Below are positions 52,115 to 58,530 of a DNA stretch of 64,000 nt, piece by piece. Within the stretch, counting starts at the first letter, position 1. Each line of letters opens with the position of its first letter. Location: positions 6,324,001 to 6,388,000 of the forward strand of contig NZ_CP011273.1 in assembly GCF_001610895.1 (NCBI RefSeq). Reading direction: 5' to 3'. Below the pieces are notes generated by a model, which saw only the letters and a program-made list of their open reading frames with translations, was not told where the DNA came from and made no database searches. The stretch comes from Planctomyces sp. SH-PL62 (GTDB lineage Bacteria > Planctomycetota > Planctomycetia > Isosphaerales > Isosphaeraceae). The translations under genes and the position numbers were made by a program.

Positions 52115-53048
52115 TCACGCCCCGTCTTCCTCGAAGAAGTCGTTCGAGACGTCCTTGAGGGCGTAGGTCTTGGTGGTCGTCACGCCCAGGTCGTGCTCGA
52201 TCATCAACTCCGCGAGCCGGTCGCCGTCGACCAGCACGACCTTCTTCCCCTCGATGCGCTGGATGTAGTCCGCGCCGTCCCTGGTGAACGTGGAGGTGGT
52301 CAGGATGACCCCCTTTCGCGCCCGGTAGTAATCCATGCTGCCGACGAACTGCTGGACGACCGGTCGCCCCACCGGGCCGTCCCAGCGCTTGGCCTGGATG
52401 CAGACCACGTCGAGCCCCAGCTTGTCCTGCCGGATCACCCCGTCGATCCCGCCGTCGCCCGCCTTCCCCGTCACGCTCCCGTGCCCCGCCACCCCGCCGT
52501 AACCCATCGCCATCAACAGGCGGACGACCACGCTTTCGAAGAAGCCCGGCGAGCAGGTCCTCAAACGACTCAGGAGCTCCTCCGCCGTCGCCCGCACGAT
52601 CGACTCATAAGCGGAGTCGATCAACTCGTGCGGCGTCTGTTCCTCCTCGACGACCTTGGCGACGGGCGACGATTCGGTGGTCTCGTCTAGGTGTCGGGGT
52701 TTGGCCCGTTCTTTTGAAGGCGATGTATGAAGGAAATCGCGTTAGGAACTTGACGTCGATCCGTGCCGGTCCCTCCGCAAGGACGCTACGTCCCAAGTCC
52801 GTGATGCGAACCCGCCCTCTCATGGGATATTCGACCAACCCCGCAAACTTCATGTGCGACCGCGCCCAACTCACGCGGTTCCCTATCGTCGTTTGCTCGT
52901 CGCTTGGGACGCGATGTTCCCGTTCCTCTTCCGTAAGTCCGAACTGATCGGCGATCGCGATCGTCAATTCGTGACTGCTCCAATTCCGCCCGTCCGCAAG
53001 AAGCTTGAGTACCGGCAGCATGATCGTCTGGAAATCGGGGATCGCCAC
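52115..53048 (-). pseudogene. mrr: Mrr-type restriction endonuclease, split by a one-base frameshift
   Basis: The 5' part (53048 to about 52716) encodes the Mrr N-terminal winged-helix domain, beginning MAIPDFQTIMLPVLKLLADG and ending FLTRFPSYIAF. The 3' part (about 52711-52115) encodes the Mrr catalytic domain, with ELIDSAYESIVRATAEELLS, AGDGGIDGVIRQ and CIQAKRW (the D...QxK nuclease site). Between them an A4 run (plus-strand T4 at 52712-52715) seems to contain one extra base: removing it joins IAFKERAKPRHLDETTESS to the catalytic part. The start is GTG 53048 with GAGG seven bases upstream. Mrr enzymes cut methylated or foreign DNA. Whether the break is real decides if the cell has this activity. 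Confidence 0.75.
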
Positions 53049-53506
53049 GGCCGGGCCTCGCATCGGGACAACGCGTCAATCGCGGGGTGTGCTGGGGGTC
53101 TCGGGGCGTGCCCCTCCCACCATCCATTTATACAGCATGGTCTCCCCTCGGGGCTCGTCCGCCTCTCCAACGCGTCGTTCGGTCCCACTGTGGATATGGA
53201 GGGAGCCTTGCGCCGTGGGCTCTCGAAGGCCCTCCGCAGACATGCGGGATACACCGCGAGCATGATCGAAAGTCGCCGAACGAACCCAATTTCCGCGCCG
53301 CTATTTCGACCCCAACCTTAAACTGAACCGCAACTTATGTCCGACGGCTTCATTCCCGGCCCGGCGCGATCGAAGCCAATATGGGGCGTCGGGATTTCCC
53401 GGGATCGGCGATTCTGAATAAAATTAAATCCAGGCGGCTCTCGTTCGACCGGGAGGTCCTGGTCGTCGAGGGGTGCGAGTGGGCGGGGAAATCCTGGAGA
53501 GCGTCG
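53049..53506. other. Intergenic region, possible degraded repeat
   Basis: These 458 bases between mrr (-) and the DUF1003 gene (+) have lower GC and no convincing gene. Around 53270-53325 one frame reads ERTQFPRRYFDPNL and another NEPNFRAAI, phrases I associate with a degraded dispersed repeat of planctomycete genomes; this is tentative. Confidence 0.35.
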
Positions 53507-54076
53507 ATGGGTCCGATTCGTTCGATTGATGAGTTGACGAGCCAGAACATCGCGATTGTCGCCAAGATGGAGGAGGATTCGCGGAACGTCCGCACGCGGG
53601 GCGAGCGCCTGGCCGACGCGATCGCCGCGCTGGTCGGAAGCTGGACGTTCATCCTGATCCAGACGACGCTGCTGTCGGTGTGGGTGCTGCTCAACCTGCT
53701 GGCCTGGTCGCGGCACTGGGACCCGTATCCGTTCATCCTGCTGAACCTGATGTTGTCGTTCCAGTCGGCCTACGCGGCCCCGATCCTGATGATGAGCCAG
53801 AATCGCCAGGCCCGGCTCAGCGAGCGCCGGCACCACCTGGACCTGCAGGTCAACATGCTGGCCGAGCAGGAGACGACCGAGATCCTCCGCCTCCTGCGAG
53901 TCTTCTGTGAGAAGAACGGCATCGCCCCGGACGACGACCGCGAGTCCCTGTTCGAGGAGGACATCCACCACGACGACATCATCCGTCGGATCGAGTCGGA
54001 GCTGGAGCCGAGGGTCGACCCGGCGAGCAACCCCACGGCCGTCCCGAGGGCGTCGGCGAACGGGACGGCCTCCTGA
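53507..54076 (+). CDS. DUF1003 membrane protein
   Basis: A 189-residue protein. The core ADAIAALVGSWTFILIQTTL, with the following helix (WVLLNLLAW) and PYPFILLNLMLSFQSAYAAP, is characteristic of the DUF1003 family of inner-membrane proteins with two transmembrane helices. The C-terminal part is charged and helical (HHLDLQVNMLAEQETTEILR). GGAGAG lies six bases before ATG 53507. Function unknown; some relatives have been linked to ion or toxin responses. It lies 131 bases upstream of the kinase-nicotinamidase gene, in the same direction. Confidence 0.88.
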   Translation: MGPIRSIDELTSQNIAIVAKMEEDSRNVRTRGERLADAIAALVGSWTFILIQTTLLSVWVLLNLLAWSRHWDPYPFILLNLMLSFQSAYAAPILMMSQNRQARLSERRHHLDLQVNMLAEQETTEILRLLRVFCEKNGIAPDDDRESLFEEDIHHDDIIRRIESELEPRVDPASNPTAVPRASANGTAS

Positions 54077-54207
54077 GGGCCGGATCGGTCGGGTCGGGTC
54101 GAGAAGGCCCCCGGCGCGCGGTTTTGCCGCCCCGGGCCGTCCGGCGGTAGGGTAGACTTGGAGTTTGGAGCGTCCCCGCCCTTCCCCGCCGCCGACCGAG
54201 GTCCGCC

Positions 54208-55785
54208 ATGGCCGACGACCCCTTCTTGAAGAACCCCAACGTGGGGCGATGCCGGCTGATCTCCCGGATCGGCGAGGGGGGGATGGGGGTCGTCTATCGG
54301 GGCTGGCACGAGGACCTGGACCTGCCGGTCGCGGTCAAGTTCCTGCACCCGGATCGGGTGGCGGAAGGCCGGGGGGCGGATCGGTTCCTCCGCGAGGCGA
54401 GGCTCGCGGCGAGGCTGAACCATCCGGGCCTGGTGCGGGTCTTCGACTGCGGCCAGGTCGACGGGCGGTCGTACATCGTCATGGAGTATGTGGACGGCCA
54501 GGGGCTCGACGCCCACATCGCCGAGCGTCAGGCGGTGGGGGTGGACCGCTCGTTGCAGATCGCCGAGGAGGCGGCGCGGGCGCTCGCCGAGGCCTGGACG
54601 CAGGTGGGGGTGATCCACCGCGACGTCAAGCCGGCGAACATCCTGCTGACCTCCGGCGGCCAGGTGAAGCTGGCCGACCTGGGGCTGGCGAAGGTCGCCG
54701 AGACGGCCGCGGACTCCACCGACGCCACGATGGCGTTCGCCAGCCGGACCGAGGCCGGCACGTCGCTGGGGACGCCCGCGTACATGCCGCCGGAGCAGTT
54801 CCTCGACGCCGCCTCGGTCGACCTCCGGGCCGACGTCTACGCCCTGGGGGCGACGCTCTACCACATGCTCGCCGGCCGCCCCCCGTTCGAGGCCGACGGC
54901 CTCTTCGCCCTCCTTCGACTCATCGAGCGCGAGGACCCGCCGCCGCTCCCCCCGCACGTGCCGCTGGCCGTCGAGCAGCTTGTGGCCCGAATGATGGCGA
55001 AGAAGCCCGGCGACCGCCACCAGTCCTACGCCGAGCTGATCGACGACCTCCACGCCGCGCAGCGCCCGGCGGAGGCGAGCCCGCCGACCCCGACCCCGAC
55101 GCCCCGCCCGTCGCCGCGGAGCGGGGTCTCGGCGATCATCCCGGCGGCGAGGACGGCGGGAAGGGCGATCCACTCGGCCTCGCCGAGCGAGAACCGGGTG
55201 CTCCTGGTGGTGGACGTGCAGAACGACTTCTGCCCCGGCGGCGCGCTGGGCGTCCCCGGCGGCGACGAGCTGCCGGCGATCATCAACAAGCTCTCCCGGC
55301 GGTTCGCCCACGTCATCCTGACCCAGGACTGGCACCCCGAGGACCACCTCTCGTTCGCCTCGTCCCACCCCGGCGAGAAGCCCTTCGCGGCGATCGAGCT
55401 CCCCTACGGCCCCCAGGTCCTCTGGCCCGACCACTGCGTCCGCGACACGACCGGGGCCGAGTTCCACCCCGATCTGAAGGTGGAGAACTGCCAGCTGATC
55501 ATCCGCAAGGGCTACCACCGCGAGATCGACAGCTACTCCGCGTTCTTCGAGAACGACCGCTCCACTCCCACGGGCCTCGCCGGCTACCTCCGCGAGCGCG
55601 GGCTCAACCGGCTCTTCCTCGTGGGCCTGGCGACCGATTTCTGCGTGGCCTACTCCGCCCTGGACGCCCGCCGCCTGGGCTTCGAGGTCTCCGTCATCGA
55701 ATCCGCCTGCCGCGGCATCGACCTCGACGGGTCCCTGGAAGCCGCCTGGGAGCAGATGGAGGAGGCCGGCGTGACCCGGGCGTGA
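54208..55785 (+). CDS. Ser/Thr protein kinase fused to a nicotinamidase (PncA-like)
   Basis: One uninterrupted 525-residue ORF. Residues 15-285 are a PknB-type kinase: glycine loop IGEGGMGVVY (21-30), Lys44 in VAVK, HRDVKPAN (137-144, catalytic Asp139), DLG at 157-159 in place of DFG, and GTPAYMPPEQ. A Pro/Ser/Thr-rich linker spans about 286-328. Residues 331-525 match isochorismatase-fold nicotinamidases: Asp336 in VVDVQNDFCPGG, metal ligands Asp374, His376 and His380 in QDWHPEDH, Lys434 in IIRKGY, and Cys479 in TDFCVAYSALDARR. The D-K-C triad and metal site look complete. Nicotinamidase turns nicotinamide into nicotinate for NAD salvage. There is no transmembrane segment, so the protein is probably cytoplasmic. 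The linker has no methionine that would offer a clear separate start. Confidence 0.92.
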   Translation: MADDPFLKNPNVGRCRLISRIGEGGMGVVYRGWHEDLDLPVAVKFLHPDRVAEGRGADRFLREARLAARLNHPGLVRVFDCGQVDGRSYIVMEYVDGQGLDAHIAERQAVGVDRSLQIAEEAARALAEAWTQVGVIHRDVKPANILLTSGGQVKLADLGLAKVAETAADSTDATMAFASRTEAGTSLGTPAYMPPEQFLDAASVDLRADVYALGATLYHMLAGRPPFEADGLFALLRLIEREDPPPLPPHVPLAVEQLVARMMAKKPGDRHQSYAELIDDLHAAQRPAEASPPTPTPTPRPSPRSGVSAIIPAARTAGRAIHSASPSENRVLLVVDVQNDFCPGGALGVPGGDELPAIINKLSRRFAHVILTQDWHPEDHLSFASSHPGEKPFAAIELPYGPQVLWPDHCVRDTTGAEFHPDLKVENCQLIIRKGYHREIDSYSAFFENDRSTPTGLAGYLRERGLNRLFLVGLATDFCVAYSALDARRLGFEVSVIESACRGIDLDGSLEAAWEQMEEAGVTRA

Positions 55786-55989
55786 ACCGGCCCCGCCGCC
55801 CCCCGCGCCCTCGACGCCGGGAGGGGCCGTCGTCGGGCCTCGAATCGACCCGAAATCCGAGGGCTGGGCTTGCTTGTGCGGGGCCGGGGCGCTCGGCATA
55901 ATCGACCCGTCGATCGCCGGCGCGACGAACCCGACTCTCCGTCAACCGGGCGTCGCCGGCTTCCCTATTTCGGACTGCAGAGAAGCATC

Positions 55990-58530
<2,541 letters not shown>

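What the first reader, a model, noticed from the sequence alone, without database searches (positions are those of the whole stretch)
54208..55785. Ser/Thr kinase fused in frame to a nicotinamidase
The ORF joins a complete PknB-type kinase (Lys44, Asp139, Asp157) to a complete nicotinamidase (Asp336, Lys434, Cys479; metal ligands 374, 376, 380) through a Pro/Ser/Thr-rich linker. I know of no described enzyme with this arrangement. It would put NAD salvage directly under a kinase module, with the linker a plausible autophosphorylation target. The DUF1003 gene upstream and the membrane pyrophosphatase downstream are in the same direction, so PPi/NAD metabolism could be linked; that part is inference.
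Basis: partly seen in the sequence, partly recalled or inferred. Interest (0 to 1): 0.82.

Follow-up and report, generated by a model that had tools for sequence, protein, structure and literature searches.

The report
Protein kinase fused to a nicotinamidase
Some planctomycete bacteria make one protein that joins a signalling kinase to the enzyme that breaks down the vitamin nicotinamide; the fusion is real, old and maintained, but what the kinase does to the enzyme is untested.

Summary
ORF 54208-55785 (+) encodes a 525-aa protein: a complete Hanks-type Ser/Thr kinase (about residues 13-283), a low-confidence linker, and a complete PncA-type nicotinamidase (328-525) above the NCBIfam equivalog cut-off. 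It is neither a frameshift nor an assembly artefact. The fusion, with its catalytic residues, is intact in 16 sequences from at least five family groups of one planctomycete class. The kinase halves form one clade (100/98), so a single fusion is the simplest reading. Both halves are under purifying selection.

In two lineages the nicotinamidase of this clade stands alone; in one, the start and linker flank a clean loss of the kinase. No kinase of this clade was found without its nicotinamidase in the class sample. The kinase-less copies changed at 8 and 10 residues invariant in the fusions (fused rows: at most 4). I read the nicotinamidase as the core and the kinase as its regulator; this is inference.

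The proposed NAD/pyrophosphate operon is not supported. NAD salvage fits the window genome (PncB present, no other nicotinamidase found), but three fusion-bearing genomes show no PncB; there, nicotinamide removal or sensing fits better. I found no published description within limited searches. New variant of a known kind.

The parts
54208..55785 (+). Kinase-nicotinamidase fusion gene, 525 aa plus stop
   Evidence: full-length alignments of 9 and of 16 fusions
54197..54201 (+). CGAGG, ribosome-binding-site-like, six bases upstream of the ATG; also upstream of the start in the five other same-genus copies
   Evidence: upstream listing
54244..55056 (+). Hanks-type Ser/Thr kinase domain, residues 13-283: Lys44, Glu63, HRD Asp139, DLG Asp157
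   Evidence: Pfam and NCBIfam, PknA/PknB alignments, AF2 model and Foldseek
54748..54750 (+). Thr181 in the activation loop, aligned with an activation-loop Thr of M. tuberculosis PknA/PknB; conserved in the fusions aligned
   Evidence: its role is recalled
55063..55188 (+). Pro/Ser/Thr-rich linker (residues 286-327), variable, ending in a short conserved stretch (IP near 311-312, P-x-ENR at 326-330)
   Evidence: pLDDT < 50 at 293-324
55189..55782 (+). Nicotinamidase domain (residues 328-525): triad Asp336, Lys434, Cys479; metal ligands Asp374, His376, His380, His409
   Evidence: PRK11609 equivalog; alignment with nicotinamidase 2wt9; AF2 block pLDDT mostly 94-98; TM 0.92-0.95 to 2wta/2wt9
53381..54076 (+). 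DUF1003 gene, 131 bp upstream, same strand; not part of a conserved neighbourhood
55870..58530 (+). Membrane pyrophosphatase gene downstream (real start may be the ATG near 55990); downstream of the fusion in 3 of 18 loci only

Best explanation
This is a soluble bifunctional protein in which a PncA-type nicotinamidase carries its own Hanks-type kinase on a flexible tether. Shown by sequence: both domains are complete, conserved and under purifying selection, and the trees point to one fusion event. Inferred: the nicotinamidase is the functional core, hydrolysing nicotinamide to nicotinate. The kinase is a regulatory attachment that autophosphorylates in its activation loop (Thr181). It then tunes the attached nicotinamidase, in cis or within an oligomer, or a partner held near it, in response to a signal not yet known. 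Where PncB is present, this would set the flow of nicotinamide into NAD salvage. Where it is absent, it would set nicotinamide removal only.
For: Two complete domains. Catalytic residues kept in the fusions aligned. dN/dS 0.08-0.35 for the kinase and 0.05-0.27 for the nicotinamidase in six pairs. The 16 fused kinases form one clade, 100/98; the nicotinamidases form one clade with two kinase-less members nested in it (the AU test rejects the 16 fused alone, p 0.015). Nicotinamidase without kinase exists: G028 with a clean loss, and G305. Kinase of this clade without nicotinamidase was not found in a class draw of 397 genomes at E <= 1e-60, six candidates scored per genome; the next kinases are 40-46% identical. 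The kinase-less copies have 8 and 10 changes at the 109 positions invariant in the 16 fusions; leave-one-out for fused rows gives at most 4, mean 1.4. The window genome has PncB and NadA, and its only other hit in the nicotinamidase part is a YcaC equivalog.
Against: No activity or phosphorylation data exist. The AF2 model does not fix the domain orientation (pTM 0.56), so there is no structural evidence of contact. The linker is poorly conserved. The kinase was lost in G028, so it is dispensable there. Three fusion-bearing genomes (G052, G146, G097) show no nicotinate phosphoribosyltransferase, which weakens the salvage reading. Faster change after kinase loss could also come from relaxed selection on the whole gene; it rests on two rows, compared with positions invariant in 16 rows while the leave-one-out control uses 15. 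Support for the 18-row nicotinamidase clade is only 87/39 (93/87).
Confidence: 0.42

Rival explanations
1. Nicotinamide-sensing kinase: the nicotinamidase is the input domain. Its substrate occupancy or turnover switches the kinase, which signals nicotinamide level (NAD breakdown) to other targets.
For: A kinase whose only recognised partner domain is an enzyme that binds nicotinamide. In three genomes without detected PncB the product has no known salvage route, so sensing or removal fits better. No kinase of this clade was found without its nicotinamidase in the class draw.
Against: The catalytic residues of the nicotinamidase are kept, where a pure sensor could lose them. The nicotinamidase persists without the kinase in two lineages, so it has a job of its own.
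Confidence: 0.27
2. Simple tether: two independent activities share a polypeptide, for co-expression or co-location, with no regulation between them.
For: Poorly conserved, low-confidence linker and undetermined domain placement. Clean loss of the kinase in G028 leaves an intact nicotinamidase frame.
Against: Joint retention in five family groups with the same domain order. Nicotinamidase positions invariant in fusions drift after kinase loss.
Confidence: 0.23
3. Nicotinamide removal: the main role is relief of product inhibition of NAD-consuming enzymes, not NAD salvage, with the kinase adjusting that. (Overlaps with the readings above.)
For: NadA was found in 16 of 17 fusion-clade genomes, so salvage is probably not the only NAD source. 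G052, G146 and G097 show no PncB.
Against: Twelve of the 15 fusion-bearing genomes searched do have a PncB. NAD-consuming enzymes were not surveyed.
Confidence: 0.15
4. Artefact: assembly error, frameshift read-through, or an internal start giving a separate nicotinamidase.
For: Start-type codons occur near the start of the nicotinamidase domain in all 16 copies; GTG is at residue 331 in 11 of 16 and at residue 334 in 12 of 16.
Against: Intact fusions in 15 other sequences, including single-contig genomes. No one position has a start-type codon in all 16, and matches to AGGAGG at residue 331 are 3-4 of 6.
Confidence: 0.03

Closest known systems
Bacterial nicotinamidase/pyrazinamidase PncA (NCBIfam PRK11609; PDB 2wt9/2wta, Acinetobacter)
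   Same: 58-60% identity over the domain, same triad and metal ligands, fold TM 0.92-0.95
   Different: PncA is a free-standing enzyme; here it is the C-terminal half of a kinase fusion
PknA/PknB-type Hanks Ser/Thr kinases
   Same: 33-37% identity, catalytic motifs and activation-loop Thr
   Different: PASTA kinase equivalog cut-off not met (248.6 against 450 bits); an enzyme domain stands in place of the membrane and PASTA regions
Other bacterial kinase fusions (Table 2 of PMC1262709: kinase+pectinesterase, kinase+guanylate cyclase, kinase+HSP70 in Pirellula)
   Same: Hanks kinase joined to an unrelated C-terminal module
   Different: No nicotinamidase or isochorismatase is named in that paper's main text
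Free-standing nicotinamidases of other planctomycetes
   Same: Same enzyme family, mostly 42-62% identical; a second, more distant group at 39-47%
   Different: No kinase attached. The fused clade groups instead with three alphaproteobacterial PncAs and four free copies of family group f15 (100/100)

Membership tests
Nicotinamidase (PRK11609 equivalog) | Score above the curated cut-off over the whole domain | tested here: met
   215.3 bits against 174, residues 329-523 of 525
Nicotinamidase (PRK11609 equivalog) | Asp/Lys/Cys triad and metal-binding Asp/His/His/His (assignment by recall of PncA) | tested here: met
   D336, K434, C479, D374, H376, H380, H409 invariant in 9 fusions and aligned with 2wt9
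Nicotinamidase (PRK11609 equivalog) | Hydrolysis of nicotinamide | not testable with these tools
   needs an enzyme assay
Hanks-type Ser/Thr kinase (PF00069) | Score above cut-off; Lys, HRD Asp and DFG-type Asp present | tested here: met
   150.1 bits against 31.7; K44, D139, D157 invariant in 9 fusions; DLG in place of DFG
Hanks-type Ser/Thr kinase (PF00069) | ATP-dependent phosphorylation of Ser/Thr | not testable with these tools
   needs an assay
PknB/Stk1 PASTA kinase (NF033483) | Equivalog cut-off, with C-terminal PASTA region | tested here: not met
   248.6 bits against 450, profile positions 7-278 of 563 matched; C-terminal half is nicotinamidase
Conserved operon with pyrophosphatase/DUF1003 | Same neighbours across relatives | tested here: not met
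   pyrophosphatase in 3 of 18 loci; DUF1003 in no cluster of three or more loci

The most novel reading that the evidence does not exclude
A cytoplasmic Hanks kinase that reads NAD turnover: its fused nicotinamidase is an enzymatically active nicotinamide receptor whose occupancy gates the kinase. This would be a vitamin-B3 sensor kinase and a direct wire from NAD breakdown to protein phosphorylation, used even where nicotinate cannot be salvaged (no PncB).
Probability: 0.22. Interest if true: 0.78.

Novelty: new variant of a known kind. Interest (0 to 1): 0.5.

Why it matters
For most bacterial Hanks kinases the input is not known (recalled). Here the likely input or target is built into the same chain and has a simple, assayable activity, so kinase control of (or by) NAD metabolism becomes directly testable. 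The natural kinase-less orthologue in G028 is a ready control. Three genomes that hold the fusion but no detected PncB also raise the question of what a nicotinamidase is for when its product has no known use.

Tried and rejected
Rejected: assembly or frameshift artefact (intact in 15 other sequences). Rejected: a conserved internal start. Rejected: conserved operon with pyrophosphatase or DUF1003. Rejected: further kinase-nicotinamidase fusions among nicotinamidase hits with long open frames: eight such loci (L169-L174, L238, L239) had no kinase match beside the nicotinamidase.

Inconclusive: vertical inheritance against horizontal spread. In the 16-row full-length tree family group f1 is one side of a branch only at 65/18, while the one fused genome of genus g7 nests inside genus g1 at 100/98. 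Rows used and dropped: the nicotinamidase trees hold 16 fusions, the two kinase-less copies and 23 free rows picked from the loci held. Three viral nicotinamidases with long branches, present, were left out; two of them fell inside the fork that holds the fused clade (20 rows, 92/86). The broken copies L167 and L168 are in no tree. Clade support depended on the rows: 87/39, 93/87.

In the plasmid collection no place covered 80% of the query. The phylum search sampled 392 genomes. PF04095 is a weak probe here: it gave only E 1.4e-4 for G160, whose PncB scores 7.9e-153 with TIGR01513, so PncB absence rests on three searches together. Eight full-text searches listed no paper whose title or abstract start describes this fusion; most listed papers were not opened, and papers outside that open-licence library were not searched.

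Full report
What is there. The ORF at 54208-55785 (+) is a single open frame of 525 codons. Pfam and NCBIfam place a Hanks kinase at 18-271 (E 1e-43) and a nicotinamidase at 329-523 (PRK11609 equivalog, 215.3 bits, cut-off 174). The best solved relatives are PknA/PknB for the first half and the Acinetobacter nicotinamidase 2wt9 for the second. The AlphaFold2 model (45-row alignment: window, two fusions, 24 kinases, 18 viral nicotinamidases) gives two mostly confident domains (mean pLDDT 84) and low confidence at 166-191 and 193-202 (activation-loop region) and 293-324 (linker). Its pTM of 0.56 means the relative placement is not determined. Foldseek's first 22 hits are 2wta/2wt9 and bacterial kinases such as PknA, PknB and PknI.

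Distribution. Fusions were found intact in 16 sequences: the window; the five other same-genus genomes held (G001-G005); G059 of genus g7 (the same contig as named record L041, Aquisphaera insulae, judged by equal contig length and coordinates); G014 and G031 (g10); G052 and G146 (family group f2); G160 (f5); G097 (f8); G177 and G308 (f3); and the MAG record L042. In G308 the first aligned residue is 4 and its start was not settled. In the family, 10 of 45 genomes have a nicotinamidase match at E <= 1e-30: nine fused, one free. In the class sample, 126 of 397 genomes match at E <= 1e-20; 15 are intact fusions. Other hits were judged by open-frame length, and the long frames by search; none of the eight checked was a fusion. 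In the phylum sample, 36 of 392 genomes matched at E <= 1e-40, and the only fusions seen were the window genome and G052, of the same class.

One origin, then losses. The 16 kinase halves form one clade against 33 other kinases (100/98). The nicotinamidase halves form one clade together with two free copies, from G028 and G305 (87/39; 93/87 with three alphaproteobacterial PncAs added). The AU test rejects a clade of the fused rows alone (p 0.015), so the free copies are best read as kinase losses. In G028 the ORF holds a start MPDDPSK, like the MSDDPYL start of many fusions, and runs on into a linker-like stretch and the nicotinamidase: the kinase is cleanly gone. In G305 the contig ends 60 bases beyond the reading frame and stops precede the nicotinamidase; G305 is not among the matches of the kinase search (where genomes without a match are mostly not listed), and that assembly is only 75% complete. 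G204 and G161 hold broken remnants. The converse, a kinase of this clade without nicotinamidase, was not seen: of 21 class genomes with a kinase match at E <= 1e-60, 15 are fusions, one is the G204 remnant and five are 40-46% identical kinases; six candidates were scored per genome.

Constraint. Six pairwise comparisons give dN/dS 0.08-0.35 (kinase), 0.05-0.27 (nicotinamidase) and 0.25-0.89 (linker); in one pair the kinase value slightly exceeds the linker's. Of 109 nicotinamidase positions invariant in the 16 fusions, the free copies differ at 8 (G028) and 10 (G305); leave-one-out counts for the fused rows are 0-4, 22 in all over 16 rows. This suggests, without proving, that part of the nicotinamidase is held by the kinase partnership. 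D379 and N329 changed in both free copies.

Metabolic setting. In the window genome the fusion is the only strong nicotinamidase hit. The other hit in that part is a YcaC equivalog (384.5 bits, cut-off 310). There is a PncB equivalog (539.5 bits, cut-off 503). NadA is found in 16 of 17 fusion-clade genomes; the miss is G305. A TIGR01513 PncB is found in 12 of the 15 fusion-bearing genomes searched and in both free-copy genomes. G052, G146 and G097 have none by TIGR01513, by PF04095, or by a search with the window genome's own PncB, which did find those of G031, G177 and G160. G052 and G146 are single-contig assemblies at 99-100% completeness. So nicotinate made there has no known route back to NAD that I could find, which counts against a pure salvage reading.

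Neighbourhood. Of 18 loci compared (window, 14 intact genomes, L042, the truncated L167 and the kinase-less L160), the pyrophosphatase lies downstream in 3 (the window, G001, and G003 at greater distance), all of genus g1. The DUF1003 gene is in no cluster shared by three or more. Some loci end close to the gene, so neighbours could be missed there. The gene looks like a separate unit.

Mechanism. The best reading is a nicotinamidase with a built-in regulatory kinase; the main rivals are a nicotinamide-sensing kinase and a plain tether. Loss of kinase but, in these samples, not of nicotinamidase, intact active sites in both halves, and drift after kinase loss favour the first. The PncB-less genomes favour sensing or removal of nicotinamide in those lineages. 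None of this shows phosphorylation or enzyme activity.

Novelty. Kinase fusions with other modules are a known kind (PMC1262709, section 6 read). Two surveys of bacterial and planctomycete kinases do not name isochorismatase or nicotinamidase in their main text (find passages), and eight searches of the open-licence library listed no paper evidently about this pair. Supplementary domain tables could not be read, so the pair may be tabulated somewhere.

Noticed in passing
window 52115-53063 (-): An Mrr-type restriction endonuclease appears split over two overlapping frames (Mrr_N in one ORF, Mrr_cat in the next), suggesting a frameshifted or two-part gene.
   Followed up: no
G052, G146, G097 (genomes holding loci L158, L165, L162): Fusion-bearing genomes without a detected nicotinate phosphoribosyltransferase, although NadA is present.
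   Followed up: partly
L167 (G204) and L168 (G161): Broken remnants of the fusion gene: L167 lacks both ends, L168 has a decayed nicotinamidase part only.
   Followed up: partly
nicotinamidase tree, L138, L140, L141, L144: The fused nicotinamidases and four free ones of family group f15 group with three alphaproteobacterial PncAs rather than with the 19 other planctomycete enzymes in the tree (100/100), which may reflect an old transfer between phyla.
   Followed up: partly
L192-L216 (viral contigs): 25 loci on viral contigs encode relatives of the nicotinamidase domain, 31-53% identical; possibly phage NAD-salvage genes. Their surroundings were not examined.
   Followed up: no
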